Source: Prosapia bicincta
Taxonomy: Eukaryota > Arthropoda > Insecta > Hemiptera > Cercopidae
Direction of reading: 5' to 3'
Length of the DNA stretch: 64,000 nucleotides
Assembly: GCA_036971475.1 (NCBI GenBank)
Contig: JBAIZL010000007.1
Span: forward strand, 32,787,002 to 32,851,001
Shown here: positions 1 to 31,000 of the stretch, piece by piece
Position numbering within the stretch: the first letter of the stretch is position 1
Layout: every line of letters starts with the position of its first letter
Program-made: the position numbers and the translations under genes
The notes under the pieces: model-generated
What the model was told of the DNA's origin: nothing
Seen by the model: the letters and a program-made list of their open reading frames with translations, nothing else
Databases searched by the model: none

Positions 1-1469
1 GCTCCTATAATACTTATTATAGATCAATTCTAAGGGCACAATGCGAATCTATGGTCGATTGTGCGTTTATTATGCCTTTTAAATGAGAAATCCATTTTTT
101 GTAGAAATCGCAAAATCCATGAACTATAATTCATGCATTTTTTTTAGAGCAAACATATGACAATTGCCATAGCTCCTATAATACTTATTATAGATCAATT
201 CTAAGAGCACAATGCGAATCTATGGTCGACCTGCGTTTATTATGCCTTTTAAATGAGAAATCCATTTTTTGTAGAAATCGAAAAATCCATGAACTATAAT
301 TCATGCATTTTTTTTAGAGCAAATATATGACAATTGCCATAGCTCCTATAATACTTATTATAGATCAATTCTAAGAGCACAATGCGAATCTATGGTCGAT
401 TCTGCGTTTATTATGCCATATAAATGAGAAATCCATTTTTTGTAGAAATCGCAAAATCCATGAACTATAATTCATGCATTTTTTTATAGAAAATATATGA
501 CAATTGCGATAGCTCCTATAATACTTATTATAGATCAATTCTAAGAGCACAATGCGAATCTATGGTCGATTCTGCGATTATTATGCCTTTTAAATGAGAA
601 ATCCATTTTTTGTAGAAATCGCAAAATCCATGAACTATAATTCATGCATTTTTTTTAGAGCAAATATATGACAATTGCCATAGCTCCTATAATACTTACT
701 ATAGATCAATTCTAAGGGCACAATGCGAATCTATGGTCGATTCTGCGTTTATTATGCCTTTTAAATGAGAAATCCATTTTTTGTAGAAATCGCAAAATCC
801 ATGAAATATAATTCATGCATTTTTTTTAGAGCAAATATATGACAATTGCCATAGCTCCTATAATACTTATTATAGATCAATTCTAAGAGCACAATGCGAA
901 TCTATGGTCGATTCTGCGTTTATTATGCCTTTTAAATGAGAAATCCATTTTTTGTAGAAATCGAAAAATCCATGAACTATTTTTCATGCATTTTTTTTAG
1001 AGCAAATATGTGACAATTGCCATAGCTCCTATAATACTTATTATAGATCAATTCTAAGAGCACAATGCGAATCTATGGTCGATTCTGCGTTTATTATGCC
1101 TTTTAAATGAGAAATCCATTTTTTGTAGAAATCGCAAAATCCATGAACTATAATTCATGCATTTTTTTTAGAGCAAATATATGACAATTGCCATAGCTCC
1201 TATATTACTTATTATAGATCAATTCTAGGGGCACAATGCGAATCTATGGTCTATTCTGCGTTTATTATGCCTTTTAAATGAGAAATCCATTTTTTGTAGA
1301 AATCGCAAAATCCATAAACTATAATTCATGCATTTTTTTTAGAGCAAATATATGACAATTGCCATAGCTCCTATAATACTTATTATAGATCAATTCTAAG
1401 GGCACAATGCGAATCTATGGTCGATTGTGCGTTTATTATGCCTTTTAAATGAGAAATCCATTTTTTGTA
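1..1469. repeat. 171-bp satellite array, left flank (8-mer HOR)
   Basis: About 8.6 tandem AT-rich monomers of 170-171 bp; monomer starts (GCTCCTATAA) fall at 1, 172 and 342. Diagnostic variants return after eight monomers: the GATTGTGCG variant sits at 57 and again at 1423, giving a higher-order period of 1,366 bp. The GTCGACCTGCG variant, one base shorter than the usual GTCGATTCTGCG, marks the second monomer. The array is cut at 1469 by the inserted element and resumes in register at 13864. No gene is present; short open frames here are by-products of the repeat. Confidence 0.97.
1464..1469. repeat. Target-site duplication, left copy (TTTGTA)
   Basis: The six bases directly before the element terminus AGTAGAACTGGG are TTTGTA, repeated directly after the other terminus at 13864-13869. 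An uninterrupted monomer reads CCATTTTTTGTAGAAATCGC here, so exactly one copy is pre-insertion sequence. One terminal base is ambiguous: a one-base longer inverted repeat with a shorter duplication also fits, but 6 bp is the longest consistent duplication. Confidence 0.9.
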
Positions 1470-1507
1470 AGTAGAACTGGGCATAGAATAGGACAGCCAC
1501 CCCTAAA

Positions 1508-1945
1508 CTCGGCCGCTACGTAACCTAGGACTATAGGGGTAGTTTTGGATGATGCTCAAGGTCATCCCGACCTTGACCCCAGACCAAGGGGTGGTTTCGA
1601 CCACGTTCAGGGGGGGTAGGGGGTAGTTTTTCGAAAAAAAAAAAAAAAATCGGCCGCTACGTAACCTAGGACTATAGGGGTAGCTTCGGATGATGCGGGC
1701 GGACGTCGTGACCCTGACCGTAGCTTTGGGGGTGGTTTCGACCACGTTTAGAGGGGTAGGGGGTAGTTTTTCGAAAAAAATTTTTTTCCAACACACTGAC
1801 CCAAGCCAGCCAAAATGGATCAAACCTAACCTAACCTACGTGTTGGGGGTGACCTCGGCTACGTTCAGGACCATACGCGGGGGATGCTCCGGGGGTGGAT
1901 TGGGGGTGGGGGGTAGTTTTCGAAAAAAAATTTGGAAAAACGTGC
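1508..1945 (+). repeat. Terminal ~140-bp repeat block, left arm
   Basis: Three diverging copies of a G-rich, roughly 140-bp unit. The first two open with the same CGGCCGCTACGTAACCTAGG module followed by a TATAGGGGTAG stretch (about 1509 and 1650). Each unit includes a GTGGTTTCGACCACGTT dyad (replaced by a variant in the third) and ends in GGGGGTAGTTTTTCG plus an A-tract. It is immediately subterminal, the position where many DNA transposons keep transposase-binding repeats, but nothing here proves that role. Confidence 0.8.
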
Positions 1946-1997
1946 CTTGACCGATAGGGTGAGTCTAGAGTGTATTATTGCGTCGGTAGGGGTAGTT

Positions 1998-2350
1998 TCA
2001 CCTAGGGGTAGTTTTTGAATAAAATACGAAAATGCCGAAAATCGAACGGTTTGATCGAATGGCTGTATGGGATATGTCTAGAGTCCAATAAGGAACGCTG
2101 CGGGGGTGGTTTACCTAGGGGTAGTTTTTACAAAAAATATGAAATTGCCAAAAATCGATCGGTTGGACCAACAGACAGTACGGGATACGTGTAGAGTCAA
2201 GTACGGGCTGCTGAGGGGGCTGTTTCACCTAGGGGTAGTTTTTAAAAAAAATACGAAATTGCCAAAAATCGATCGGTTGGATCAAATGACCGTACGGGAT
2301 ATGTGTAGAGTCTATTATGGACCAATGCGGGGGTGGTTTCACCTGTGGGT
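1998..2350 (+). repeat. ~114-bp tandem repeat block, left arm
   Basis: Three copies plus a partial fourth begin with ACCTAGGGGTAGTTTTT or a variant at about 1998, 2113, 2228 and 2341. Each copy contains an ATTGCCAAAAATCGATCGGTT-type segment and a GGGATATGTGTAGAGTC-type segment. The near-114-bp period is a multiple of three, so it keeps a 104-codon frame open across copies; this looks like repeat structure rather than a protein gene. Confidence 0.8.
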
Positions 2351-2378
2351 TGTCTTCAGAATGCCAAAAATAATAGGC

Positions 2379-2512
2379 GGAATAGCTCCGGTGGAGGGGG
2401 TAACTTTTGGAAAGACTTAATGGTTATCTGAAGTAAGGCCTCTTAGGTAGTGTAACCCAGGAATAGCTCCGGTGGAGGGGTAACTTTTGGAAAGACTTAA
2501 TGGTTACCTGAT
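2379..2512 (+). repeat. Short direct duplication in left arm
   Basis: A roughly 53-bp segment (GGAATAGCTCCGGTGGAGGG through AAAGACTTAATGGTT) occurs at 2379-2432 and again at 2460-2512 with only small differences. The two copies are separated by a short linker ending in TAACCCAGG, a phrase typical of the neighbouring GGTAAAGC minisatellite. Confidence 0.8.
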
Positions 2513-2752
2513 GACGTATCAGCGCTCGAGCAACTCTATGCAAGTAGTAGTAGGCTCACCCTAACTATAGTGGTCTACCCAAAATGAATCGGGTGATGAG
2601 GGGCCCAGGGTAAACGACTGCCAAACTCAAAATTTGTCTATCCTACTAAATTAATAAACAATACACTCAGCCTATAAGTAAAGCTACACAAGAGCAGGGC
2701 TAGGATGATTGCTATACCAACTACCAAGACAAATACCCCAACCAAGTCCTAA
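2509..2752 (+). repeat. Modules X and Y, first copies (left arm)
   Basis: Module X (about 2509-2665) holds a GACGTATCAGCGCTCGAGC segment and ends near AAAATTTGTCTATCCTAC. A diverged second copy lies at about 3765-3877. Module Y (about 2664-2752), with AAGTAAAGCTACACAAGAGC and CCAAGACAAATACC, returns at about 3213-3306. The arm was therefore built by successive segmental duplications. No gene is visible. Confidence 0.65.
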
Positions 2753-3240
2753 GTAAAGCTACCACAGAGTTAGACCTTAGGTAAAGCTAACACGGAGCAA
2801 AGCCTCGTGTAAAAGCTATCCCGAAGCCAAGCCCTAGGTAAAGTAACCCAGGAACTAGACCTCCGGTAAAGCTACCACGGAGTTAAACCTTAGGTAAAGC
2901 TAACACGGAGCAAAGCCTCGGGTAAAAGCTATCCCGAAGTCATGCCCTAGGTAAAATAACCCAGGAACCAGACCATCGGTAAAGCTACCATGGAGTCGGG
3001 GCCTAGGTAAAGTAACCCAGGAACCAGACCATCGGTAAAGCTACCACGGAGTTAAACCTTAGGTAAAGCTAACACGGAGCAAAGCCTCGTGTAAAAGCTA
3101 TCCCGAAGCCTTGCCCTAGGTAAAGTAACCCAGGAACCAGACCATCGGTAAAGCTACCACGGAGTCGGGGCCTAGGTAAAGCCTCCTCGGAGCAAGACTT
3201 TAGGTGAAGCAGTCAGCCCTTAAGTAAAGCTGCCCAAGAG
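2745..3240 (+). repeat. GGTAAAGC minisatellite, left arm
   Basis: Tandem units of about 27-30 bp share a GGTAAAGCTA core followed by variants such as ACACGGAG, CCACGGAG or TCCCGAAG. Four unit types alternate (with GTAAAAGCTATCCCGAAG and GTAAAGTAACCCAGGAAC), making a higher-order unit of about 113 bp repeated several times. Related units recur at the inner ends of both arms and in the core, so one minisatellite family seeded several parts of the element. Confidence 0.85.
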
Positions 3241-3306
3241 TCGGGCCTTAGGATGGATGCTATATCAAATACAGCCTCTCGACCAAGACAAATACCTCCA
3301 CCAAGT

Positions 3307-3650
3307 CGTGGTGAGCGTTCAGCCCCTACAGAGTATGGGCCTAGGTTAAAACCACCCCGAAGCCGGGCCCTAGCTAGAGACACCCTGGAGAAAGGCCTGA
3401 GGCAAATTCACACTAGAGCAAGTGGGGGGTTGATTGCCAAAAATGATCGACCAATCACAACACAGGGGCCCTGTAGGTCCACGCAAACGGTCGCTGTAAG
3501 ACGGAAAGGCTTATATACAGCGTTAAACCAATATATATGATAGCCCACATAATGTGTTAAACAAATATGTAAGCCTACATACATACTATGCTAGGCCAAC
3601 ATACATGGGCCTACTATGTTTGTAAACCACAGGCCAAACCCTTATGACCT
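3307..3650 (+). other. Non-coding stretch with a weak promoter-like arrangement
   Basis: This interval starts with decayed minisatellite units and then becomes single-copy within the arm. It has a CCAAT at 3451-3455 and a TATATA at 3513-3518, about 60 bp apart and pointing toward the core. No convincing reading frame follows, so a non-coding transcript or chance are both possible. From about 3540 it runs into short repeats of the type ACATACATACTATGCTA. The mirror copy lies at 11683-12026. Confidence 0.35.
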
Positions 3651-3752
3651 GAGCTATTTTCACCTCTTCTATCAGGTTGATCCTGGCAACCGTATAATAT
3701 GGGAGGTACTATATGGTACATCTACCAATGCATAACCTATCAAGCCCACGTA
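3651..3752 (+). repeat. ~100-bp duplicated module, copy 1 (left arm)
   Basis: The segment running from CTGAGCTATTTTCACCTC through CCTGGCAACCGTATAATA to GTACTATATGGTA and CTATCAAGCCCACG has a diverged direct copy at 4427-4526. Because of the arm symmetry there are four copies in the element. It contains no open frame that is maintained between copies. Confidence 0.8.
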
Positions 3753-3764
3753 AAGGTTTAATAT

Positions 3765-4426
3765 ATTTGACGACGTATCGGCGTTCGAGCGACTCAGGTA
3801 TTAGGCCCTCCATAACTAGAGGGGGCAAGGGTTATGATTGTCAAAATTTGTCTATGCTACAAAATAATAAACAAAGCAATAAAGCCCCGTCGTTTCAGGG
3901 AATACGCTTGACCGTGTGTTAGACATGTACAGACATGCAGAGATAACGCATTATCTAAAAACCGCAACGGCTGCCGGCGACCACTATAGCAGGCATAAAA
4001 ACCCGCACGGCTGTGTCGTTGTGAATTTAGGCACGTGTTTATGTTTTGATTACTGTATCAAATTACTGTGTACTGTCGGCATACCAAGGCCTACATATAT
4101 ATAATCAGAAATCAGTGTAAATAATCAAATAGCCTCAATGGACATCTCCTATAGCTGTAAATGTATCTAGATATAAAGGTATATATGGAGAAACACTAAT
4201 AATGAGGCCTATCACAAAACGTGAATAAATATATGTTATAAAACGATGCTAAGTCAACATGCAAGCTATCATACATGGGCTTGTTAAGCCTACATACATG
4301 ATGGTACACATAATGTGTTAAACAAACATGCGTGTAAACCTGCATACTATGCCTAGCCGACTTACATGAACCCCTAAATGTGCCCACTATGTCGGTAAAC
4401 CACTGGCCAGGGCCTATATGATCTGA
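3765..4426 (+). other. Non-coding arm DNA with module X copy 2 and short AT repeats
   Basis: The first 110 bases repeat module X of 2509-2665. The rest includes a G+C-rich patch (3960-4030), then AT-rich sequence with repeated phrases such as TACATACATGATGG and GTTAAACAAACATGCGTGTAAACC that recur further inward. Short frames of 62-69 codons exist, but they show no motif and lie in repeats. I see no gene here. Confidence 0.6.
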
Positions 4427-4526
4427 GCTAGTTTCACCTCGTCTATCAGGTAGAACCTGGCAACTGTATAATACGGGAAGTACTATATGGTATAGCTAAC
4501 AATGCTAACCTATCACGCCCATGACG
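4427..4526 (+). repeat. ~100-bp duplicated module, copy 2 (left arm)
   Basis: Diverged direct copy of 3651-3752. It keeps TTTCACCTCGTCTATCAGGT, CCTGGCAACTGTATAATA and GTACTATATGGTA, followed by CTATCACGCCCATG. The conserved part is continuous across about 100 bases, so it is a real duplication and not a chance match. Confidence 0.8.
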
Positions 4527-4559
4527 GTCAACAAATATTACAATATAATTTAAAAAAGT

Positions 4560-4800
4560 TACGCAACCTATATACATACAATGCTAACCAATATAGGCAT
4601 ATATACTATGTTAAACCAGCATGCAATATACTCTAAATAGCCATATATACGCTATTAAACAAATATGCGTGTAAACCTACATAAATACCACGCCGGGCCA
4701 ACATCTATGCTATCATAGATAGGCGTATATACTATGTTAGGTCTACATACTGCGTTAAACAAACATGTGTGTAAGCCCGCATGCATATTATGCTAAATCG
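4560..4800 (+). repeat. AT-rich TATACTATGTTAAACCA repeat cluster, left arm
   Basis: Repeated phrases TATATACTATGTTAAACCAG, CGCTATTAAACAAATATGCG and GTGTAAACCTACATAAATA alternate. The corresponding part of the right arm has one additional 181-bp unit of this cluster, the only length difference between the two arms. No gene is visible. Confidence 0.75.
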
Positions 4801-5660
4801 ACAAGGGCCAACAAATTATATCCAATGCATAGTTTAGCTAATGGTTATCACACAGTAGCCTGACTACAACTTGCCCACATAATACCTGATACATAGCTAG
4901 ACTAATCATTAACACATAGTATCCGAAGCGTAGCCCGACGAAGGGTTAACATATAGTATCCGATAAGTAGCTTGAGAATGCCCCAACACATAATATCCGG
5001 TGCATAGCCTCGCTAATGGTTAGCACATAGTAGCCGATGTTGATCCTGGCAGTGGAATATCCGTTGTGTAGCCTGACTAAAGGGTAACATAGCTAGGCTA
5101 ATGATTAACATAAAGTATCCAATGCATGGCTTGGGTAATGTATATAGTTAGCCTACATTCTGTGTTATCTGTGTAAACCCACATACTATGCTAAGCTGGT
5201 TATCCATAGACACAAATCTATGGTGACGCAAGAGTAACCAGCACCCTGACAACAGATACCTAGCATGATCATAGCCTACATTGCCTGATAACAGATACCT
5301 AGCCTGACCATAGCCTACATAGCTAGACAAAAGATACATAACTAGACAATAGATACCTAGCCTGACAACAGACACCAATCCTGGAATCAAATACATAGCC
5401 CGACAAACGATGCATAGCCCGACAAGGGCTAGCACATAGTATCCGAGGTATAGATTGACTAACGGTTAACACATGGTATCCAAAGCATAGCTAGGCTAGT
5501 GAATAACTAGTGGTTAGTTTGACTATGGTTAACACACACAGTGTCCGATGCATAGCTTAGCTAATGGATAACACATAGTAACCTATGCTTAGCCTGACTT
5601 AGCCTAACACATAGTATCCGACGAACGGCTCAACTAAGGCTAACACACAGTATCCGGATC
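4800..5660 (+). repeat. ACATAGTATCCGA(T/A)GCATAGC minisatellite region, left arm
   Basis: Many irregular units of about 40-50 bp share AACACATAGTATCCGA and TGCATAGCCTGACTAA-like phrases. A sub-cluster at 5220-5420 repeats AGATACCTAGCCTGACAA at closer spacing. A 95-codon frame crosses this region on the minus strand in this arm (5148-5435), but its predicted protein is itself repetitive and low in information, so I do not call it a gene. Confidence 0.75.
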
Positions 5661-6028
5661 GAATATGACGTCATCCAGGGCGGAGACGGAGGCTATGTTG
5701 ATACCGTGATGGCCAGTGTAGGCTAGATCAAATAACCAAACCACTGCCTTACGCTAAGTTTAACCAACCAACATACGCGAAGTTCAAACGAACAACATTG
5801 ACACCAAGTCCAAATAGGCTATGGTTAGTGAAGGCTAGATCAGCTAATCAACGTTGAAAAACCTACGCTAATCAACCAGCAAACTGACACCTGGTTCAAA
5901 CGGGCCTATGGTTAGTGAAGGCACCGGCAAAAGCCCTAGGTCTTAGACATAGCTACCAACGCTTACCAAAATAGCTATGCAGAAACCGTCAAGGCCTGTC
6001 TAGGTATGTTGTATCATTTACAGCATAC
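5661..6028 (+). other. Inner arm, mostly single-copy, with CRE-like site
   Basis: Less repetitive DNA with two related segments (GTTAGTGAAGGC phrases near 5823 and 5911; CAAATAGGCTATGG and CAAACGGGCCTATGG). A perfect TGACGTCA lies at 5666-5673. No open frame of interest was seen on either strand. Confidence 0.55.
5666..5673. promoter_or_regulatory. TGACGTCA (CRE/ATF-type palindrome), left arm
   Basis: Perfect 8-bp CRE palindrome, a known CREB/ATF binding sequence. The mirror copy is at 9479-9486, and a third, independent copy lies between the two genes at 7322-7329. Whether this arm copy works is unknown. Confidence 0.35.
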
Positions 6029-6130
6029 TAACTAAGGTAAAGCTACCTTTGAGGTAGGCCCTAGGTAAAGCTACCTTTGAGGTAGGCCTTAGGTAAAACC
6101 ACCTTGAGGTCTTAGGTAAAGCTAGCTTAG
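6029..6130 (+). repeat. GGTAAAGC minisatellite at the arm/core boundary, left
   Basis: Three to four units of the AGGTAAAGCTACCTTTGAGGT type cross the end of the inverted repeat at 6075. Beyond 6075 the left units (CTTTGAGGTAGGCC) no longer match the right units (CTGGAGTCAGGTC), although they belong to the same family. The arm identity therefore ends within a repeat tract. Confidence 0.8.
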
Positions 6131-6536
6131 AGAAGGGCCCGTGTTTTGCCCTAATCAGATTTTAACGCACCTTAACGACAGTTTACATTTCTGTTAGATT
6201 TAGCATGAGTTTACATGTTTTTGCGAAGTTATATTTAACCTAAATTACGCCGGGTGATTGGAATTTTTACAGAGATATGTCTAAGCTAGTGTTAAACTTG
6301 TCTAGAGGCTGAGTTTACTAGATATCTAGTAATGTGTCTCGTGCGGGTTGCGACCTGTCAAACAGATTGTAATGTGTATAATGCAGCTGTAACTAGATTT
6401 AACACTGAATGTTTAATTTGGTTATTGTTCAAATCACATTATTATCAAGACACTAGTACTTATCCTATGTTGACCTCTACCTATATAGTTTGTTTTAGGA
6501 GTTTCAATAAGTACAAACACGTTTAAACAAAATCAT
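6131..6536. other. Single-copy non-coding DNA downstream of the IAP gene
   Basis: About 400 bases of AT-rich unique sequence beyond the IAP poly(A) signal. A 64-codon open frame at 6332-6526 shows no motif and nothing supports it as a gene. No repeats, promoter elements or RNA gene were recognised. Confidence 0.5.
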
Positions 6537-6542
6537 TTTATT
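6537..6542 (-). terminator. Poly(A) signal of the IAP gene (AATAAA)
   Basis: AATAAA on the minus strand, about 30 nt past the IAP stop codon. This is the expected position for a compact 3' UTR. Confidence 0.75.
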
Positions 6543-6570
6543 GATCACATAGTAGTATTATTTACATTAG

Positions 6571-6598
6571 GCTACGATAGATATACTCTTATCGTAGC
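6571..6598. other. Inverted repeat at the 3' end of the IAP coding region
   Basis: GCTACGATA at 6571-6579 and its exact reverse complement TATCGTAGC at 6590-6598 could form a 9-bp stem with a 10-nt loop. It overlaps the stop codon and the last codons of the IAP gene. It could be an RNA structure in the mRNA or a side effect of the coding sequence. Confidence 0.5.
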
Positions 6599-7108
6599 GG
6601 ATGTCCGCACTCTGCATATGCTACACTCTTGAAGGTTCAATGCACACCCCAGACAGGCAAACACATGTCCGCACGGTAGAAGGGCAACCTGTATTTCTTC
6701 GATACAGCAAATCTTGCACAGCGTACGATCATTCTGATTGTTTACACCGTCATCGTCGTCCGAGTAGTCTTCATCGTCTGTTGTACAGATGTCTTCCCCC
6801 ATCTGTGCCTGTTTAGCACATATACCCACTATGTATTTACATTTAGGAAACCACTTTGCATGTTCCTGTAACGGATCATCATTCGCTGACCAATCTTTAA
6901 GGCCTCCGGCGCATGTAAAGCACAATGTTTGATCTTCTGGGCCGGTGTAAAAGAATCCCGCTTCGCTGAGACGCTCGGGGTTGACAGTATCGTTTGACAC
7001 TCCTTTCCAAGTACGAAACGATCTTAATCTACGACGATACGGTGATAGTTTGGGGAAGGCTTTCTTCTCGATTGTGAGAGTGTCTGTCCAGTAGTAGACA
7101 CCTACCAT
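6572..7108 (-). CDS. BIR-RING inhibitor-of-apoptosis protein (IAP), 178 aa, single exon
   Basis: Complete intronless gene. One BIR domain (about residues 25-92) begins with RRLRSFRTW and has GFFYTG, the zinc ligands Cys63, Cys66, His83 and Cys90, and the GGLKDW...DP..EHAKWFP signature of a type II BIR with a peptide-binding groove. An acidic linker (109-120) follows. The C-terminal RING (131-165) has all eight ligands: Cys131, Cys134, Cys146, His148, Cys152, Cys155, Cys162 and Cys165. The protein ends in a short hydrophobic tail (RVYLS) like the one IAP RINGs use for dimerisation. IAPs bind caspases or IAP antagonists through the BIR and act as E3 ubiquitin ligases through the RING, in the cytosol; that role here is inferred from family. 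The start at 7108 is the first ATG after a TATA/initiator pair. One BIR plus one RING resembles compact viral and invertebrate IAPs. It is divergent from the spliced RING-like gene and looks intact. Confidence 0.93.
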   Translation of the reverse strand: MVGVYYWTDTLTIEKKAFPKLSPYRRRLRSFRTWKGVSNDTVNPERLSEAGFFYTGPEDQTLCFTCAGGLKDWSANDDPLQEHAKWFPKCKYIVGICAKQAQMGEDICTTDDEDYSDDDDGVNNQNDRTLCKICCIEEIQVALLPCGHVFACLGCALNLQECSICRVRTSATIRVYLS

Positions 7109-7114
7109 GCTGTT

Positions 7115-7150
7115 GTCTGAGGACTTGGGTCTGTGCTGTCCGTACTTATA
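7115..7150 (-). promoter_or_regulatory. IAP core promoter: TATA box and initiator
   Basis: On the minus strand TATAAG (7150-7145) lies about 32 nt before the A of a TCAGAC initiator-like sequence (7120-7115). This predicts transcription starting near 7118 and a 5' leader of only about 10 nt before the ATG at 7108. The spacing is what is expected for TATA-Inr promoters in animals. Confidence 0.65.
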
Positions 7151-7520
7151 TTGTTGGTTAGGGGATGATTACGTCAAGGTTGATCAGAGGCATGTTGAAC
7201 TCGTTCAGATTTATGCTCAGCAATAGGCCGATTTCTCCTGCAGATGGACTAGTGTTATGGCAAGCAACAGTTAAACCTATACAGATGACCGTCCGGACGC
7301 CATCTTGACAGACATTTTGTTTGACGTCATTTGCTGCGGTTATGTTGATATCGCGGTCATAACAGTATTAATGTATAGGTTTTAAAGAAGCATTGTCGAG
7401 CTCTGTGAGTATGATCTACACCTGCAATGAAACGTTACTCTATTACCGTCGGTCATAGAGGTAATTATATACCGTTTTTCGGCTTGTGATGAGCAATTAC
7501 GCGGGGAGGGGTGAAGTAGG
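7151..7520. promoter_or_regulatory. Shared divergent regulatory region between the two genes
   Basis: This interval separates the two core promoters and has no reading frame. It contains a perfect CGTCCGGACG palindrome (7290-7299), overlapped by GACGCCATCTT (7296-7306), whose complement AAGATGGCGTC matches the known YY1/Pleiohomeotic consensus. A TGACGTCA CRE palindrome (7322-7329) follows, and a half-site TTACGTCA lies near 7170. The clustering within 40 bp suggests a common enhancer for both genes, but this is inference from motifs. Confidence 0.5.
7322..7329. promoter_or_regulatory. TGACGTCA (CRE/ATF-type palindrome) in the core
   Basis: Perfect 8-bp CRE palindrome roughly midway between the two divergent start codons. 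CREB/ATF factors bind this sequence and respond to cAMP or stress. The other two copies in the element are in the arms, at mirror positions. Confidence 0.5.
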
Positions 7521-7557
7521 TATATATGCCGGGAATTTCATACAGAGAGCACCAGTC
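7521..7557 (+). promoter_or_regulatory. RING-like gene core promoter: TATA box and initiator
   Basis: TATATAT at 7521-7527 lies about 33 nt before the A of CCAGTC (7552-7557), an initiator-like sequence. Transcription would begin near 7554, giving a leader of about 42 nt before the ATG at 7596. No other ATG occurs in that leader. Confidence 0.6.
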
Positions 7558-7595
7558 TCCAACGCTTTTTGCAATTAAGTGTCTTAAGATTAACG

Positions 7596-8793
7596 ATGAC
7601 CGATAAAAGTATTCAGTCAGAGGTGAGTATGAAATAGTGTGTTCTTTTTTCTAAATACTTTCTATTTTTCGTTATTCCAATTTTTCCATTGGTTTTTCCA
7701 GCCAACAAACAACGACGATGAAACGGGTATTTGGGATGATAGCAGACGTAGCCCAAGGACATCGTACTATAGCCGCCATTCGATGGAGGCCGAGCCGAGT
7801 ACCTCTGGTACCACATCGCAGGTAATTATATACAATTTAGACTATTATCAGAGGCTCATTTTCATATCTAATAATGATATGTTTCTTTCAGGGGACAAAC
7901 ACTCCGGCCAAAGGACCCGAGTCTACCAACCATCCAACACTGGTGATTATTGTATTCCTATTGCGTTATTAACGTTATCTTTGTATTTTTCATTACTAAT
8001 AAATTGTATTTCATAGGCTGGACCAATAAATCACGCTATCATCAGGGTCGGAAATCGAATTTTCTATTCAAGCGTGTTAGAGGAGGAACTGAAGCACATA
8101 CGAGGGGTCGAGCACGCCCGTATTGACTGTTTACTTTGTTTAGGACGCAGGATACGATATCCTCCTCAATATGCGGTAAGTTTTATTGAACAGTGATAGT
8201 AGTAGTATAGGCTTATACAAGATTTTTTTTAATTTCTATTTATTCCTTTTCTAGACTGTTGTGGAGTATGCACGTGCAGCTGCAGCACGTAGCGTAACGA
8301 CTGATGCACTACATATGCTAAGACGGCTTGTATCGGACCTAGAGGCGGCGTTGCGTAAAGACGCGTGTGAGGATAGCTTCTACGCAGTCGGCGTATGGAG
8401 GATTATTATTGGCGAGCTGGACAAGCTAGTTGAAGAAGGCAGAAGAAGAGTGGCTGTCGCTGAAGCGAAGGCAGTAATGGTCGAGCGAGACCCTCCATAC
8501 ACGGTCGTAAGTGTTACATTTTGTAGCGATACCTGTATTTATACTATTCGTGTACAATAATATAAATTATCCGCTTTGTACGTGTGTTGAAACAGAGAAG
8601 TTCGGGAGAGCAGATTGAAGGAGGCGGCTATCGTATAGCGGACTGCGTTGTATGCTTGGGAAAACCACCATGCACTGTCATCGTACCCTACGGCCACGTT
8701 TATTGCAACGAGTGTGCTGAAAAGGTGCAGATGTGCCCCATATGTAGGAAACACGTAGACAGACGCTACCGGCTATATCTGAACCTGGAGTAA
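7596..8793 (+). CDS. Spliced RING-like zinc-finger protein, six exons, 268 aa
   Basis: Predicted exons are 7596-7622, 7702-7821, 7892-7942, 8017-8175, 8255-8506 and 8596-8793. All five introns are GT-AG, 70-89 nt long and in phase 0, and the joined frame is open from ATG to TAA. The N-terminal part (1-66) is polar and Ser/Thr/Pro-rich. Exon 4 (67-119) ends with RIDCLLCLG (Cys104, Cys107). Exon 5 (120-203) is Ala/Arg/Glu-rich and probably helical. Exon 6 carries an IAP-like RING: Cys220, Cys223, His237, Cys240, Cys243, Cys250 and Cys253. The third ligand position is Tyr235, with a Cys at 229 that might or might not substitute. The C-terminal tail (RRYRLYLNLE) resembles the tail of the neighbouring IAP. 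RING proteins usually act as E3 ligases or dimerisation partners; whether this one binds zinc normally is uncertain. I do not recognise the full-length family. The donor of intron 3 (CTG|GTGATT) and the acceptor of intron 5 are the weakest sites. Confidence 0.75.
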
Positions 8794-8811
8794 TTGTTCA
8801 AAATATTCGTT

Positions 8812-8817
8812 AATAAA
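8812..8817 (+). terminator. Poly(A) signal of the RING-like gene (AATAAA)
   Basis: AATAAA begins 19 nt after the TAA stop at 8791-8793, followed by a T-rich stretch (GAGTTTTATTT). This supports 8793 as the true 3' end of the coding region. Confidence 0.75.
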
Positions 8818-8894
8818 GTCTTACCTGTATATCCAGAGTTTTATTTACACCATCATATTTCACAGCATCGATAGCCGCTTAACTATTGTTAAGG

Positions 8895-9123
8895 GTTGAC
8901 TCCAAGCTAGCTTTACCTAAGGCTCCGGGTTGGCTTTACCTGAGACTTTGCTCAATGATTGCCTTACCTAAGGCCCTGGTGGCTTCACCTAAGACCTGAC
9001 TTCAGGATGGTTTTAACCTAAGTCCAAGGTGGCTTTACCTAAGACCTGGGTGTCTTTACCTACGACCTGACTCCAGGGTAGCTTTACCTAGGGCCTACCT
9101 CAAAGGTAGCTTTACCTTAGTTA
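8895..9123 (-). repeat. GGTAAAGC minisatellite at the core/arm boundary, right
   Basis: About eight units of 27-30 bp, read on the plus strand as GGCTTTACCTAAGACCTGA and variants, i.e. the reverse complement of the left-hand GGTAAAGC family. The first six units (8895-9076) are core sequence without a mirror copy. From 9077 on the tract is part of the inverted arm. Confidence 0.85.
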
Positions 9124-9492
9124 GTATGCTGTAAATGATACAACATACCTAGACAGGCCTTGACGGTTTCTGCATAGCTATTTTGGTAAGCGTTGGTAGC
9201 TATGTCTAAGACCTAGGGCTTTTGCCGGTGCCTTCACTAACCATAGGCCCGTTTGAACCAGGTGTCAGTTTGCTGGTTGATTAGCGTAGGTTTTTCAACG
9301 TTGATTAGCTGATCTAGCCTTCACTAACCATAGCCTATTTGGACTTGGTGTCAATGTTGTTCGTTTGAACTTCGCGTATGTTGGTTGGTTAAACTTAGCG
9401 TAAGGCAGTGGTTTGGTTATTTGATCTAGCCTACACTGGCCATCACGGTATCAACATAGCCTCCGTCTCCGCCCTGGATGACGTCATATTCG
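9124..9492 (-). other. Inner right arm, mostly single-copy
   Basis: Mirror of 5660-6028, with no gene seen. It includes a TGACGTCA palindrome at 9479-9486. Confidence 0.55.
9479..9486. promoter_or_regulatory. TGACGTCA (CRE/ATF-type palindrome), right arm
   Basis: Exact mirror of the site at 5666-5673. It is preserved in both arms, as expected from arm identity alone, so its presence twice is not independent evidence of function. Confidence 0.35.
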
Positions 9493-10352
9493 ATCCGGAT
9501 ACTGTGTGTTAGCCTTAGTTGAGCCGTTCGTCGGATACTATGTGTTAGGCTAAGTCAGGCTAAGCATAGGTTACTATGTGTTATCCATTAGCTAAGCTAT
9601 GCATCGGACACTGTGTGTGTTAACCATAGTCAAACTAACCACTAGTTATTCACTAGCCTAGCTATGCTTTGGATACCATGTGTTAACCGTTAGTCAATCT
9701 ATACCTCGGATACTATGTGCTAGCCCTTGTCGGGCTATGCATCGTTTGTCGGGCTATGTATTTGATTCCAGGATTGGTGTCTGTTGTCAGGCTAGGTATC
9801 TATTGTCTAGTTATGTATCTTTTGTCTAGCTATGTAGGCTATGGTCAGGCTAGGTATCTGTTATCAGGCAATGTAGGCTATGATCATGCTAGGTATCTGT
9901 TGTCAGGGTGCTGGTTACTCTTGCGTCACCATAGATTTGTGTCTATGGATAACCAGCTTAGCATAGTATGTGGGTTTACACAGATAACACAGAATGTAGG
10001 CTAACTATATACATTACCCAAGCCATGCATTGGATACTTTATGTTAATCATTAGCCTAGCTATGTTACCCTTTAGTCAGGCTACACAACGGATATTCCAC
10101 TGCCAGGATCAACATCGGCTACTATGTGCTAACCATTAGCGAGGCTATGCACCGGATATTATGTGTTGGGGCATTCTCAAGCTACTTATCGGATACTATA
10201 TGTTAACCCTTCGTCGGGCTACGCTTCGGATACTATGTGTTAATGATTAGTCTAGCTATGTATCAGGTATTATGTGGGCAAGTTGTAGTCAGGCTACTGT
10301 GTGATAACCATTAGCTAAACTATGCATTGGATATAATTTGTTGGCCCTTGTC
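9492..10352 (-). repeat. ACATAGTATCCGA minisatellite region, right arm
   Basis: Mirror of 4800-5660, here read as TCGGATACTATGTGTTAACC and GGCTATGCATCGGA units of irregular 40-50 bp spacing, with the tighter AGGTATCTGTTGTCAGGCT cluster near 9780-9910. No gene is supported. Confidence 0.75.
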
Positions 10353-10774
10353 GATTTAGCATAATATAAATGCGGGCTTACACACATGTTTGTTTAACGC
10401 AGTATGTAGACCTAACATAGTATATACGCCTATCTATGATAGCATAGATGTTGGCCCGGCGTGGTATTTATGTAGGTTTACACGCATATTTGTTTAACAG
10501 CGTATATATGGCTATTTAGAGTATATTGCATGCTGGTTTAACATAGTATATAAGCTTATGTAGGATAGCATCCATGCTGGTTAGCATGGTATTTATGTAG
10601 GTTTACACGCATATCTGTTTATCACATTATGTAGGCTTAGCATATTATTTATGTAGGTATACACGCATATTTGTTTAACAGCGTATATATGGCTATTTAG
10701 AGTATATTGCATGCTGGTTTAACATAGTATATATGCCTATATTGGTTAGCATTGTATGTATATAGGTTGCGTAA
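10352..10774 (-). repeat. AT-rich repeat cluster with an extra 181-bp unit, right arm
   Basis: Mirror of 4560-4800 plus one duplicated unit. The phrase CGTATATATGGCTATTTAGAG starts at 10501 and again at 10682, a spacing of exactly 181 bp, and the sequence following each (TATATTGCATGCTGGTTTAAC) is the same. The left arm has this phrase once. This tandem duplication, or its loss on the left, is the only length change between the arms. Confidence 0.9.
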
Positions 10775-10806
10775 CTTTTTTAAATTATATTGTAATATTT
10801 GTTGAC

Positions 10807-10906
10807 CGTCATGGGCGTGATAGGTTAGCATTGTTAGCTATACCATATAGTACTTCCCGTATTATACAGTTGCCAGGTTCTACCTGATAGACGAGGTGAA
10901 ACTAGC
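10807..10906 (-). repeat. ~100-bp duplicated module, copy 2 (right arm)
   Basis: Mirror of 4427-4526, with CGTATTATACAGTTGCCAGG and the TACCATATAGTAC phrase. It is one of the four copies of this module in the element. Confidence 0.8.
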
Positions 10907-11568
10907 TCAGATCATATAGGCCCTGGCCAGTGGTTTACCGACATAGTGGGCACATTTAGGGGTTCATGTAAGTCGGCTAGGCATAGTATGCAGGTTTACA
11001 CGCATGTTTGTTTAACACATTATGTGTACCATCATGTATGTAGGCTTAACAAGCCCATGTATGATAGCTTGCATGTTGACTTAGCATCGTTTTATAACAT
11101 ATATTTATTCACGTTTTGTGATAGGCCTCATTATTAGTGTTTCTCCATATATACCTTTATATCTAGATACATTTACAGCTATAGGAGATGTCCATTGAGG
11201 CTATTTGATTATTTACACTGATTTCTGATTATATATATGTAGGCCTTGGTATGCCGACAGTACACAGTAATTTGATACAGTAATCAAAACATAAACACGT
11301 GCCTAAATTCACAACGACACAGCCGTGCGGGTTTTTATGCCTGCTATAGTGGTCGCCGGCAGCCGTTGCGGTTTTTAGATAATGCGTTATCTCTGCATGT
11401 CTGTACATGTCTAACACACGGTCAAGCGTATTCCCTGAAACGACGGGGCTTTATTGGTTTGTTTATTATTTTGTAGCATAGACAAATTTTGACAATCATA
11501 ACCCTTGCCCCCTCTAGTTATGGAGGGCCTAATACCTGAGTCGCTCGAACGCCGATACGTCGTCAAAT
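10907..11568 (-). other. Non-coding right-arm DNA (mirror of 3765-4426)
   Basis: Contains the mirror of module X copy 2 (about 11456-11568) and AT-rich short repeats. A G-to-C difference from the left arm lies near 11457. No gene is visible. Confidence 0.6.
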
Positions 11569-11580
11569 ATATTAAACCTT

Positions 11581-11682
11581 TACGTGGGCTTGATAGGTTA
11601 TGCATTGGTAGATGTACCATATAGTACCTCCCATATTATACGGTTGCCAGGATCAACCTGATAGAAGAGGTGAAAATAGCTC
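11581..11682 (-). repeat. ~100-bp duplicated module, copy 1 (right arm)
   Basis: Mirror of 3651-3752, containing the TACCATATAGTAC phrase and TATTATACGGTTGCCAGG. Confidence 0.8.
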
Positions 11683-12092
11683 AGGTCATAAGGGTTTGGC
11701 CTGTGGTTTACAAACATAGTAGGCCCATGTATGTTGGCCTAGCATAGTATGTATGTAGGCTTACATATTTGTTTAACACATTATGTGGGCTATCATATAT
11801 ATTGGTTTAACGCTGTATATAAGCCTTTCCGTCTTACAGCGACCGTTTGCGTGGACCTACAGGGCCCCTGTGTTGTGATTGGTCGATCATTTTTGGCAAT
11901 CAACCCCCCACTTGCTCTAGTGTGAATTTGCCTCAGGCCTTTCTCCAGGGTGTCTCTAGCTAGGGCCCGGCTTCGGGGTGGTTTTAACCTAGGCCCATAC
12001 TCTGTAGGGGCTGAACGCTCACCACGACTTGGTGGAGGTATTTGTCTTGGTCGAGAGGCTGTATTTGATATAGCATCCATCCTAAGGCCCGA
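11683..12092 (-). other. Non-coding right-arm DNA (mirror of 3241-3650)
   Basis: Carries the mirrored weak TATATA/CCAAT arrangement (about 11815-11882), decayed minisatellite units and module Y. No gene is supported. Confidence 0.5.
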
Positions 12093-12588
12093 CTCTTGGG
12101 CAGCTTTACTTAAGGGCTGACTGCTTCACCTAAAGTCTTGCTCCGAGGAGGCTTTACCTAGGCCCCGACTCCGTGGTAGCTTTACCGATGGTCTGGTTCC
12201 TGGGTTACTTTACCTAGGGCAAGGCTTCGGGATAGCTTTTACACGAGGCTTTGCTCCGTGTTAGCTTTACCTAAGGTTTAACTCCGTGGTAGCTTTACCG
12301 ATGGTCTGGTTCCTGGGTTACTTTACCTAGGCCCCGACTCCATGGTAGCTTTACCGATGGTCTGGTTCCTGGGTTATTTTACCTAGGGCATGACTTCGGG
12401 ATAGCTTTTACCCGAGGCTTTGCTCCGTGTTAGCTTTACCTAAGGTTTAACTCCGTGGTAGCTTTACCGGAGGTCTAGTTCCTGGGTTACTTTACCTAGG
12501 GCTTGGCTTCGGGATAGCTTTTACACGAGGCTTTGCTCCGTGTTAGCTTTACCTAAGGTCTAACTCTGTGGTAGCTTTACTTAGGACT
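12093..12588 (-). repeat. GGTAAAGC minisatellite, right arm
   Basis: Mirror of 2745-3240, read here as GTGGTAGCTTTACC units of 27-30 bp in a roughly 113-bp higher-order arrangement. Unit order matches the left arm without indels. Confidence 0.85.
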
Positions 12589-12982
12589 TGGTGGGGGTAT
12601 TTGTCTTGGTAGTTGGTATAGCAATCATCCTAGCCCTGCTCTTGTGTAGCTTTACTTATAGGCTGAGTGTATTGTTTATTAATTTAGTAGGATAGACAAA
12701 TTTTGAGTTTGGCAGTCGTTTACCCTGGGCCCCTCATCACCCGATTCATTTTGGGTAGACCACTATAGTTAGGGTGAGCCTACTACTACTTGCATAGAGT
12801 TGCTCGAGCGCTGATACGTCATCAGGTAACCATTAAGTCTTTCCAAAAGTTACCCCTCCACCGGAGCTATTCCTGGGTTACACTACCTAAGAGGCCTTAC
12901 TTCAGATAACCATTAAGTCTTTCCAAAAGTTACCCCCTCCACCGGAGCTATTCCGCCTATTATTTTTGGCATTCTGAAGACA
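12589..12982 (-). repeat. Modules X/Y and short duplication, right arm
   Basis: Mirror of 2351-2744: modules X and Y, then the duplicated GGAGCTATTCC segment at 12821-12954. No gene is visible. Confidence 0.65.
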
Positions 12983-13335
12983 ACCCACAGGTGAAACCAC
13001 CCCCGCATTGGTCCATAATAGACTCTACACATATCCCGTACGGTCATTTGATCCAACCGATCGATTTTTGGCAATTTCGTATTTTTTTTAAAAACTACCC
13101 CTAGGTGAAACAGCCCCCTCAGCAGCCCGTACTTGACTCTACACGTATCCCGTACTGTCTGTTGGTCCAACCGATCGATTTTTGGCAATTTCATATTTTT
13201 TGTAAAAACTACCCCTAGGTAAACCACCCCCGCAGCGTTCCTTATTGGACTCTAGACATATCCCATACAGCCATTCGATCAAACCGTTCGATTTTCGGCA
13301 TTTTCGTATTTTATTCAAAAACTACCCCTAGGTGA
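12983..13335 (-). repeat. ~114-bp tandem repeat block, right arm
   Basis: Mirror of 1998-2350: three and a part copies, recognised on this strand by AAAACTACCCCTAGGTGAAAC. Confidence 0.8.
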
Positions 13336-13387
13336 AACTACCCCTACCGACGCAATAATACACTCTAGACTCACCCTATCGGTCAAG

Positions 13388-13825
13388 GCACGTTTTTCCA
13401 AATTTTTTTTCGAAAACTACCCCCCACCCCCAATCCACCCCCGGAGCATCCCCCGCGTATGGTCCTGAACGTAGCCGAGGTCACCCCCAACACGTAGGTT
13501 AGGTTAGGTTTGATCCATTTTGGCTGGCTTGGGTCAGTGTGTTGGAAAAAAATTTTTTTCGAAAAACTACCCCCTACCCCTCTAAACGTGGTCGAAACCA
13601 CCCCCAAAGCTACGGTCAGGGTCACGACGTCCGCCCGCATCATCCGAAGCTACCCCTATAGTCCTAGGTTACGTAGCGGCCGATTTTTTTTTTTTTTTTC
13701 GAAAAACTACCCCCTACCCCCCCTGAACGTGGTCGAAACCACCCCTTGGTCTGGGGTCAAGGTCGGGATGACCTTGAGCATCATCCAAAACTACCCCTAT
13801 AGTCCTAGGTTACGTAGCGGCCGAG
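13388..13825 (-). repeat. Terminal ~140-bp repeat block, right arm
   Basis: Mirror of 1508-1945, ending 38 bp before the element terminus. The subterminal repeats are present in the same number as on the left. Confidence 0.8.
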
Positions 13826-13863
13826 TTTAGGGGTGGCTGTCCTATTCTATGCCCAGTTCTACT

Positions 13864-13869
13864 TTTGTA
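13864..13869. repeat. Target-site duplication, right copy (TTTGTA)
   Basis: Directly follows the terminus CCCAGTTCTACT and repeats 1464-1469. Counting 1423-1469 (47 bp) plus 13864-15188 (1,325 bp) and subtracting 6 gives 1,366 bp, exactly the period of the surrounding 8-mer repeat. This confirms a 6-bp duplication with no other loss or gain. Confidence 0.92.
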
Positions 13870-16800
13870 GAAATCGCAAAATCCATGAACTATAATTCAT
13901 GCATTTTTTTTAGAGCAAACATATGACAATTGCCATAGCTCCTATAATACTTATTATAGATCAATTCTAAGAGCACAATGCGAATCTATGGTCGACCTGC
14001 GTTTATTATGCCTTTTAAATGAGAAATCCATTTTTTGTAGAAATCGAAAAATCCATGAACTATAATTCATGCATTTTTTTTAGAGCAAATATATGACAAT
14101 TGCCATAGCTCCTATAATACTTATTATAGATCAATTCTAAAAGCACAATGCGAATCTATGGTCGATTCTGCGTTTATTATGCCATATAAATGAGAAATCC
14201 ATTTTTTGTAGAATTCGCAAAATCCATGAACTATAATTCATGCATTTTTTTATAGAAAATATATGACAATTGCGATAGCTCCTATAATACTTATTATAGA
14301 TCAATTCTAAGAGCACAATGCGAATCTATGGTCGATTCTGCGATTATTATGCCTTTTAAATGAGAAATCCATTTTTTGTAGAAATCGCAAAATCCATGAA
14401 CTATAATTCATGCATTTTTTTTAGAGCAAATATATGACAATTGCCATAGCTCCTATAATACTTACTATAGATCAATTCTAAGGGCACAATGCGAATCTGT
14501 GGTCGATTCTGCGTTTATTATGCCTTTTAAATGAGAAATCCATTTTTTGTAGAAATCGCAAAATCCATGAAATATAATTCATGCATTTTTTTTAGAGCAA
14601 ATATATGACAATTGCCATAGCTCCTATAATACTTATTATAGATCAATTCTAAGAGCACAATGCGAATCTATGGTCGATTCTGCGTTTATTATGCCTTTTA
14701 AATGAGAAATCCATTTTTTGTAGAAATCGAAAAATCCATGAACTATTTTTCATGCATTTTTTTTAGAGCAAATATGTGACAATTGCCATAGCTCCTATAA
14801 TACTTATTATAGATCAATTCTAAGAGCACAATGCGAATCTATGGTCGATTCTGCGTTTATTATGCCTTTTAAATGAGAAATCCATTTTTTGTAGAAATCG
14901 CAAAATCCATGAACTATAATTCATGCATTTTTTTTAGAGCAAATATATGACAATTGCCATAGCTCCTATATTACTTATTATAGATCAATTCTAGGGGCAC
15001 AATGCGAATCTATGGTCTATTCTGCGTTTATTATGCCTTTTAAATGAGAAATCCATTTTTTGTAGAAATCGCAAAATCCATAAACTATAATTCATGCATT
15101 TTTTTTAGAGCAAATATATGACAATTGCCATAGCTCCTATAATACTTATTATAGATCAATTCTAAGGGCACAATGCGAATCTATGGTCGATTGTGCGTTT
15201 ATTATGCCTTTTAAATGAGAAATCCATTTTTTGTAGAAATCGCAAAATCCATGAACTATAATTCATGCATTTTTTTTAGAGCAAACATATGACAATTGCC
15301 ATAGCTCCTATAATACTTATTATAGATCAATTCTAAGAGCACAATGCGAATCTATGGTCGACCTGCGTTTATTATGCCTTTTAAATGAGAAATCCATTTT
15401 TTGTAGAAATCGAAAAATCCATGAACTATAATTCATGCATTTTTTTTAGAGCAAATATATGACAATTGCCATAGCTCCTATAATACTTATTATAGATCAA
15501 TTCTAAGAGCACAATGCGAATCTATGGTCGATTCTGCGTTTATTATGCCATATAAATGAGAAATCCATTTTTTGTAGAAATCGCAAAATCCATGAACTAT
15601 AATTCATGCATTTTTTTATAGAAAATATATGACAATTGCGATAGCTCCTATAATACTTATTATAGATCAATTCTAAGAGCACAATGCGAATCTATGGTCG
15701 ATTCTGCGATTATTATGCCTTTTAAATGAGAAATCCATTTTTTGTAGAAATCGCAAAATCCATGAACTATAATTCATGCATTTTTTTTAGAGCAAATATA
15801 TGACAATTGCCATAGCTCCTATAATACTTACTATAGATCAATTCTAAGGGCACAATGCGAATCTATGGTCGATTCTGCGTTTATTATGCCTTTTAAATGA
15901 GAAATCCATTTTTTGTAGAAATCGCAAAATCCATGAAATATAATTCATGCATTTTTTTTAGAGCAAATATATGACAATTGCCATAGCTCCTATAATACTT
16001 ATTATAGATCAATTCTAAGAGCACAATGCGAATCTATGGTCGATTCTGCGTTTATTATGCCTTTTAAATGAGAAATCCATTTTTTGTAGAAATCGAAAAA
16101 TCCATGAACTATTTTTCATGCATTTTTTTTAGAGCAAATATGTGACAATTGCCATAGCTCCTATAATACTTATTATAGATCAATTCTAAGAGCACAATGC
16201 GAATCTATGGTCGATTCTGCGTTTATTATGCCTTTTAAATGAGAAATCCATTTTTTGTAGAAATCGCAAAATCCATGAACTATAATTCATGCATTTTTTT
16301 TAGAGCAAATATATGACAATTGCCATAGCTCCTATATTACTTATTATAGATCAATTCTAGGGGCACAATGCGAATCTATGGTCTATTCTGCGTTTATTAT
16401 GCCTTTTAAATGAGAAATCCATTTTTTGTAGAAATCGCAAAATCCATAAACTATAATTCATGAATTTTTTTTAGAGCAAATATATGACAATTGCCATAGC
16501 TCCTATAATACTTATTATAGATCAATTCTAAGGGCACAATGCGAATCTATGGTCGATTGTGCGTTTATTATGCCTTTTAAATGAGAAATCCATTTTTTGT
16601 AGAAATCGCAAAATCCATGAACTATAATTCATGCATTTTTTTTAGAGCAAACATATGACAATTGCCATAGCTCCTATAATACTTATTATAGATCAATTCT
16701 AAGAGCACAATGCGAATCTATGGTCGACCTGCGTTTATTATGCCTTTTAAATGAGAAATCCATTTTTTGTAGAAATCGAAAAATCCATGAACTATAATTC

Positions 16801-16970
16801 ATGCATTTTTTTTAGAGCAAATATATGACAATTGCCATAGCTCCTATAATACTTATTATAGATCAATTCTAAGAGCACAATGCGAATCTATGGTCGATTC
16901 TGCGTTTATTATGCCATATAAATGAGAAATCCATTTTTTGTAGAAATCGCAAAATCCATGAACTATAATT
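13864..16970. repeat. 171-bp satellite, 8-mer HOR (1,366 bp) right of the insertion
   Basis: The array resumes in register. GATTGTGCG markers at 15189 and 16555 are 1,366 bp apart, as on the left (57 and 1423). Other eight-monomer markers repeat at the same spacing: GTCGACCTGCG at about 13992, 15358 and 16724, and the TATAGAAAATATATGACAATTGCG variant. The pattern breaks near 16970, where a TTCATGCCTTTT variant begins a new arrangement. No gene is present. Confidence 0.93.
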
Positions 16971-30900: not shown

Positions 30901-31000
30901 CAATTCTGAGGGCACAATGCGAATCTATGGTCGATTCTGCGTTTATTATGCCATATAAATGAGAAATCCATTTTTTGTAGAATTCGCAAAATCCATGAAC
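24941..31000. repeat. 171-bp satellite, mosaic HOR (2.0-2.4 kb spacings)
   Basis: The array again uses variants of the 8-mer block (GTCTATTCTGCG near 25976, 28197 and 30247; GTCGACCTGCG near 26328, 28710 and 30594), but with extra monomers inserted, so spacings are about 1.9, 2.05 and 2.4 kb. A GATCAGTTATAAGGG variant is shared at 27481 and about 29531. The block looks like an 8-mer ancestor enlarged by insertions of monomer groups. Confidence 0.75.

What the first reader, a model, noticed from the sequence alone, without database searches (positions are those of the whole stretch)
1470..13863. A 12.4-kb element with 4.6-kb near-identical inverted arms and a two-gene core
Seen directly: defined termini (AGTAGAACTGGG and its inverse), a 6-bp TSD and a symmetric arm-core-arm layout with no mobility gene. 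Polintons/Mavericks are known for 6-bp TSDs, AG termini and long TIRs, but not for arms that make up three quarters of the element or a core consisting only of RING genes. It may be an undescribed non-autonomous, cargo-carrying class, or a remnant of an integrated virus with large inverted repeats.
Basis: partly seen in the sequence, partly recalled or inferred. Interest (0 to 1): 0.9.

Follow-up and report, generated by a model that had tools for sequence, protein, structure and literature searches.

The report
Helper-dependent piece of split Maverick virus
A 12.4-kb mobile DNA with giant mirror-image arms carries an apoptosis-inhibitor-type gene and a RING gene but no recognisable machinery of its own; elsewhere in the same genome, elements with the same ends and nearly the same length carry the integrase and capsid genes or the DNA polymerase, so it is likely one part of a virus-like Maverick system split over several elements and would move only with their help.

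Summary
The element (1470-13863) has AGTAGAAC...GTTCTACT ends, a TTTGTA duplication and 4.6-kb arms; the flanks, joined with one duplication copy, match an unoccupied satellite copy at 400 of 400 bases. The core encodes an IAP (BIR+RING) and a six-exon RING gene. It belongs to a family: 121 ends (control pattern 0); 40 of 40 facing end pairs found among the 100 listed are 10.3-13.6 kb long, mean 12.40, sd 0.66; 11 of 11 checked have exact 6-bp duplications. In 10 of 11 elements the two ends resemble each other more than any other element's, one ties. Elements with the same ends carry (i) integrase, ATPase and capsid but no polymerase match, (ii) a PolB, (iii) IAP+RING, or (iv) are palindromic about the midpoint. 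IAP and RING genes are under purifying selection (pN/pS 0.16, 0.26). Best reading: a helper-dependent member of a Maverick/Polinton system divided over several elements, arm length likely set by packaging. Whether polymerase and capsid ever share an element genome-wide could not be tested (tool busy).

The parts
1..1463 (.). left flank: 171-bp satellite array
   Evidence: TRF row 1-1469: 8.6 copies of 171 bp, 96% matches
1464..1469 (.). left target-site duplication TTTGTA
   Evidence: empty-site match 400/400
1470..6075 (+). left arm (inverted repeat); no recognised gene, with 141-, 114- and 28-bp tandem repeats among others
1470..2277 (+). terminal module shared with the capsid/integrase element C7 (91% over about 812 bp)
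6572..7108 (-). IAP gene, one exon, 178 aa, BIR + C-terminal RING
   Evidence: intact in 28 of 30 loci picked by the neighbouring gene, pN/pS 0.16
7109..7595 (.). intergenic stretch between the divergent genes, presumed to hold both promoters
   Evidence: inference from layout; not tested
7596..8793 (+). six-exon RING gene, 268 aa; exons 7596-7622, 7702-7821, 7892-7942, 8017-8175, 8255-8506, 8596-8793 (gene model by splice signals, no RNA data)
   Evidence: splice sites 30 of 30 at five introns, pN/pS 0.26
9077..13863 (-). right arm (inverted repeat of the left)
10552..10732 (.). 181-bp stretch present only in the right arm
13864..13869 (.). right target-site duplication TTTGTA
13870..64000 (.). 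right flank: same satellite array (about 293 monomers)

Best explanation
This is an integrated element without recognisable integrase, polymerase or capsid genes whose ends, 6-bp target duplication and length are shared by elements that do carry them, so it is likely a helper-dependent member of a Maverick/Polinton system divided over several elements, predicted to be replicated, packaged and inserted in trans. Shown: same ends and exact 6-bp TSDs on an element with integrase, ATPase, capsid, phospholipase-like and metalloprotease genes but no polymerase match (C7) and on one with PolB (C146); 40 of 40 facing end pairs found are 10.3-13.6 kb long, and each content type read falls in that range; in 10 of 11 elements the terminal 231 bp of the two arms match each other better than any other element's (one tie); both core genes are under purifying selection. 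Inferred: the shared terminal module is the replication origin and integrase site; protein-primed replication from paired ends re-copies one arm from the other in each cycle; a capsid that takes about 12.4 kb selects for long arms or for inverted dimers as filler; the IAP protein would keep the host cell alive, which would be this element's contribution to the group.
For: 6-bp TSDs 11 of 11. Exact empty site 400/400. 121 ends, control 0; 100 were listed, giving 40 adjacent +/- pairs, all 10,284-13,631 bp, mean 12,400, sd 658, with equal mismatch counts at both ends in 40 of 40. Terminal 231 bp: 1.45 differences within an element, 10.05 between, minimum between 4. C7 interior: rve 3.8e-9, Pox_A32 8.9e-7, DJR capsid 9.8e-109, matrixin 8.9e-31, PLA2-like 7.3e-14; the C146 PolB fragment gives no tblastn match in the C7/C303 pieces. 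C303 is 98% identical to C7 over 2.5 kb. PolB in C146: PF03175 2.8e-42. No match to the sister elements' integrase, capsid or PolB in the window element. Five of seven sampled centres are palindromes with the axis within 2 bp of the midpoint. 0 of 150 IAP hits lie within 25 kb of any of 92 integrase hits. IAP pN/pS 0.16 in 28 of 30 loci chosen by the other gene; RING 0.26 in 30.
Against: Genome-wide positions of PolB and capsid genes were not obtained (43 polymerase requests up, a further one at 139, and the one capsid request were unanswered), so a complete one-piece relative with PolB, integrase and capsid is not excluded. Only one PolB element was seen, in 6.2 of its 13.1 kb plus the ends, with degenerate-looking sequence after PolB. 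Of the 40 pairs, 7 hold a listed IAP hit, 3 a listed integrase hit and 4 more were read in part (C146, C199, C247, C350); the content of 26 is unread, and 20 of the 100 listed ends are unpaired. Only 9 of the 150 listed IAP copies could be tied to a listed end of this type (7 in pairs, 2 near unpaired ends). 12 of those 150 IAP copies and 8 of the 30 best integrase rows have stops. In C7 the two ends differ as much as from the nearest other element. No virion, extrachromosomal form or new insertion was seen. Purifying selection could also come from selection on the host.
Confidence: 0.62

Rival explanations
1. The family is driven by an ordinary one-piece Polinton (PolB, integrase and capsid together) not sampled here; the window element, C7 and C146 are internally deleted or rearranged derivatives that travel on its proteins.
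For: A described adintovirus carries PolB, integrase and capsid on one 14.5-kb contig, and two relatives of 13.3 and 13.9 kb are reported beside it (PMC8363768, passages read). The PolB element keeps a 63% similar stretch of the window's 6179-6657 region, as if the types derive from one another. Genome-wide PolB mapping is missing.
Against: The C7-type element is complete with TSD; none of its ten ORFs scanned is a PolB and tblastn with the C146 PolB finds none in its pieces, which cover it end to end. Length clusters at 12.4 kb although the content types read differ; deletion derivatives should scatter in length. IAP and RING genes are kept by selection.
Confidence: 0.28
2. A transposon that captured host IAP and RING genes and is kept because they serve the host (domesticated cargo).
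For: The nearest solved relatives of the IAP are animal IAPs, the RING gene has spliceosomal introns, and pN/pS is low.
Against: The selection signal is seen across 28-30 dispersed copies, i.e. within the propagating lineage; arms within the window copy are 99.9% identical apart from one indel, so this copy is young. Whether one fixed host locus exists was not tested.
Confidence: 0.07
3. The inverted arms are an assembly artefact.
For: Long palindromes inside satellite arrays are hard to assemble.
Against: The arms differ by five bases and a 181-bp indel; TSD and exact empty site; 40 facing end pairs on 18 contigs.
Confidence: 0.01

Closest known systems
Polintons/Mavericks (polintoviruses)
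   Same: 6-bp TSD and AG...CT ends with inverted terminal repeats (definition recalled); sister elements with the same ends carry RVE integrase, A32-type ATPase, DJR capsid and, on another element, PolB
   Different: described as 15-20 kb elements that encode these proteins (PMC4028283, passages); here the genes found lie on different elements of about 12.4 kb, and this one has 4.6-kb arms, IAP+RING and no recognised mobility gene
Adintoviruses
   Same: adenovirus-like virion genes with retrovirus-like integrase and chromodomain (chromodomain here below cut-off); anti-apoptotic homologues reported in most mammal-associated ones (PMC11071296, passages)
   Different: PolB, integrase and capsid on one molecule in the one whose gene list I saw (PMC8363768, passages)
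Segmented bidna-like viruses (Vesanto virus, up to twelve segments)
   Same: PolB of Polinton descent, segments with inverted terminal repeats, genes spread over segments (PMC8363768, PMC4061559, passages)
   Different: small ssDNA segments of 3.3-5.8 kb; parvovirus-type capsid in the group; integrase-made insertions with TSD not mentioned in the passages seen
Virophages, satellite viruses and self-complementary AAV (recalled)
   Same: helper dependence; short genomes packaged as inverted dimers to reach capsid length (analogy only)
   Different: unrelated replication genes as far as I recall; common descent not tested

Membership tests
Polinton/Maverick | 6-bp target-site duplication (as the finding states; recalled) | tested here: met
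   11 of 11 elements
Polinton/Maverick | AG...CT termini with inverted repeats (recalled) | tested here: met
   arms about 0.9 kb in C7, 4.6 kb here
Polinton/Maverick | RVE-family integrase on the element | tested here: not met
   no match in the window element; present in C7 with the same ends
[quoted passage not shown]
   no match in the window element or C7; PF03175 in C146 with the same ends; protein priming itself not testable
Polinton/Maverick | FtsK/A32-like ATPase and cysteine protease | tested here: not met
   no ATPase match here; in C7 ATPase 8.9e-7, protease only PF00770 at E=0.18, below cut-off
Polinton/Maverick | double-jelly-roll capsid gene | tested here: not met
   no match here; C7 9.8e-109
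Polinton/Maverick | length 15-20 kb (PMC4028283) | tested here: not met
   12.4 kb; 40 pairs 10.3-13.6 kb
[quoted passage not shown]
   N-terminus of the C146 PolB was not fetched; no adintovirus reference was compared
Bidnavirus-like segmented virus | parvovirus-type capsid and NS1-type helicase | tested here: not met
   the capsid of the C7 element is DJR and no helicase family matches its ten ORFs scanned at E<=0.01

The most novel reading that the evidence does not exclude
A multipartite, chromosomally integrating dsDNA virus of an animal: a Maverick whose capsid/integrase, polymerase and anti-apoptosis genes sit on separate segments with common ends, each segment held at about 12.4 kb by packaging, short segments reaching that length by arm expansion or by becoming inverted dimers.
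Probability: 0.42. Interest if true: 0.92.

Novelty: new variant of a known kind. Interest (0 to 1): 0.82.

Why it matters
Polintons are seen as ancestors of many eukaryotic dsDNA viruses and are described as one-piece genomes. A split, length-constrained set of integrated segments would show how a self-synthesising transposon can become a segmented virus, would give indirect genomic evidence that Mavericks are packaged, and would explain very long inverted arms and palindromes as packaging filler. The kept IAP gene also raises the question whether a helper-dependent part pays its way by blocking host cell death.

Tried and rejected
Assembly artefact: rejected (arm differences, TSDs, 40 pairs). 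IAP relatives in viral contigs: none. Capsid relatives in viral contigs: none with one sequence or with an alignment. RING protein: no relative at E<=0.001 among 2524 candidates; IAP: 5 among 42 candidates, best 39% identity. First pN/pS of the IAP (0.08) was set aside because those 30 loci were ranked by IAP protein similarity; the value used (0.16) is from loci chosen by the other gene. One search is void (copies not oriented). The 442/1631 figure is a misalignment of repeats, replaced by BLAST. In one search locus L065 seemed to lack a stop; its match was cut one base short, so this is not counted. The orientation of the palindrome loop differs between copies but says nothing, since the arms are alike and insertion can be either way. 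Paper searches: I saw no title or abstract start describing a segmented integrating Polinton; the library is open-access only, the lists were cut, and only passages of four papers were read.
Full report
What is there. Inside a long array of a 171-bp satellite sits an insertion at 1470-13863. Its ends are AGTAGAACTGGG and the inverse, flanked by TTTGTA twice. Joining 200 bases of each flank with one TTTGTA copy gives a sequence found unbroken in the same array at 15036 with 400 of 400 bases equal, so insertion made exactly a 6-bp duplication. Arms 1470-6075 and 9077-13863 differ at five bases and by one 181-bp stretch.

Core genes. The minus-strand ORF 6572-7108 is an inhibitor-of-apoptosis protein with one BIR and a C-terminal RING. 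The plus-strand gene 7596-8793 has six exons, each a multiple of three bases, and a C-terminal RING; its N-terminal part has no Pfam match at E<=0.1 and the whole protein no relative at E<=0.001. tblastn with the sister elements' integrase, ATPase, capsid, an unassigned ORF beside the capsid gene, phospholipase-like, metalloprotease and PolB sequences finds nothing in the window element.

Family. A DNA search with the first 231 bases gave 41 hits (40 of 1715 candidates scored). Eleven pairs face each other on one contig, 11.3-13.4 kb apart; 19 hits are unpaired. All 11 pairs have a perfect 6-bp duplication, of 11 different sequences. A pattern search with the 22-base end (up to 2 mismatches) counts 61 forward and 60 reverse matches; the reversed pattern gives 0. 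Of the 100 places listed, 80 form 40 adjacent facing pairs; every pair is 10,284-13,631 bp long (mean 12,400, sd 658) and both ends of each pair have the same number of mismatches. The other 20 listed ends are unpaired in the list.

Arms are copied from each other. In the terminal 231 bp, the two ends of one element differ by 1.45 events on average, ends of different elements by 10.05, never less than 4 (11 elements). In 10 of 11 elements the within-element difference is 0-2; in C7 it is 4, equal to the distance from its nearest neighbour. The C7 arms are 99.45% identical over 915 bp, but 91.3% to the window's arm over about 812 bp. This is the pattern expected if one arm templates the other in each replication cycle, as happens with retroviral LTRs; the mechanism is inferred.

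Where the machinery is. The C7 element (667423-679987) has arms of about 915 bp, and its interior (L087, with L003 and L005 covering the rest) encodes an RVE integrase, an A32-type ATPase, a fibre-like protein, a matrixin (hemopexin match below cut-off), a phospholipase-A2-like protein, an ORF with a sub-threshold adenovirus-protease match (0.18) and a double-jelly-roll capsid protein. No PolB is among the ten ORFs scanned and tblastn with the C146 PolB finds none. The C303 element matches it at 98% over the 2.5 kb read and also holds an integrase hit. The C146 element (298004477-298017597) has a PolB (PF03175, 2.8e-42). After PolB lies a 63% similar stretch of window 6179-6657.

Palindromes. 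The centres of seven other paired elements were sampled. Five (C247, C350, C199, C313, C361) are palindromes with an asymmetric loop of about 50 bp, flanked by inverted copies of a subterminal stretch (window about 1675-1833); the axis lies within 2 bp of the midpoint between the ends in all five. The other two are C303 and C146. The five look like inverted dimers of a unit of about 6 kb; only their centres (2.0-2.5 kb) and ends were read.

Selection. Of the 150 best IAP hits (2808 candidates), 138 have no stop; identity is 90-100%, but this list is ranked by protein similarity. In 30 loci chosen by RING-gene DNA instead, 28 have an intact IAP frame (L041 and L063 do not); pooled pN/pS is 0.16 with 37 of 67 variable sites at third positions. 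For the RING gene, pN/pS is 0.26 and GT-AG is kept at five introns in 30 of 30; one copy (L057) has an internal stop. So both proteins matter to whatever propagates. These 30 are the closest relatives by DNA, two of them from one mirrored locus.

No linkage of IAP and integrase. 0 of 150 IAP hits lie within 25 kb of any of 92 integrase hits; one lies within 50 kb. The 92 are the best of 122 rows (3634 candidates); the last 30, a lineage at 64-66% identity, were left out. Of the 40 pairs, 7 contain an IAP hit, 3 an integrase hit, none both; 4 others were read in part and 26 are unread.

Explanation. I read the set as one Maverick-type system split over elements with common ends. Steps shown: common ends, 6-bp duplications, narrow length range, split of genes among the elements read, within-element similarity of ends, selection on both core genes. 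Steps inferred: replication and integration in trans, packaging in the capsid coded by the C7 type, length filling by arms and dimers, protection of the host cell by the IAP. The main rival is an unsampled one-piece driver. I could not test it because genome-wide searches for PolB (44 requests) and capsid (one request) did not complete.

Comparison. Polintons are described as 15-20 kb with PolB, integrase, ATPase and protease (PMC4028283, passages); Drosophila-associated adintovirus 1 carries PolB, integrase and capsid on one 14.5-kb contig (PMC8363768, passages). In the passages I read, segmented relatives are ssDNA bidna-like viruses (PMC8363768, PMC11071296; Polinton descent of their PolB: PMC4061559). 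As the window element fails the gene-content tests, I do not file it as a Polinton; it has Polinton-type ends and, by inference, uses Polinton proteins. The capsid of the C7 type has 1065 relatives at E<=0.001; of the 120 listed, the four that bear an organism name are from leafhoppers.

Noticed in passing
window 13870-64000: The satellite shows a local higher-order repeat of eight monomers (1366 bp): the empty-site sequence recurs at 15036 and 16402 with 400 and 399 of 400 bases; array-wide the 171-bp period is stronger.
   Followed up: partly
G000:C260:223575476-223580262, C313:82145090-82151663, C313:267176912-267182503: IAP genes occur in oppositely oriented pairs 4-6 kb apart; at C260 two RING copies also face each other, so even the core can become mirrored.
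   Followed up: no
G000, e.g. C79:188370547-188371482: A second integrase lineage at about 66% identity has 24 nearly equal-scoring copies without stops, a likely young second Polinton family.
   Followed up: no
L094:1380-1783: The PolB element keeps a 63% similar stretch of the window's 6179-6657 region (around the IAP 3' end), hinting that element types derive from one another.
   Followed up: partly
L087:5136-6572: The capsid/integrase element encodes a matrixin metalloprotease with a Thr-rich stretch, unusual cargo for a Polinton as far as I recall.
   Followed up: no
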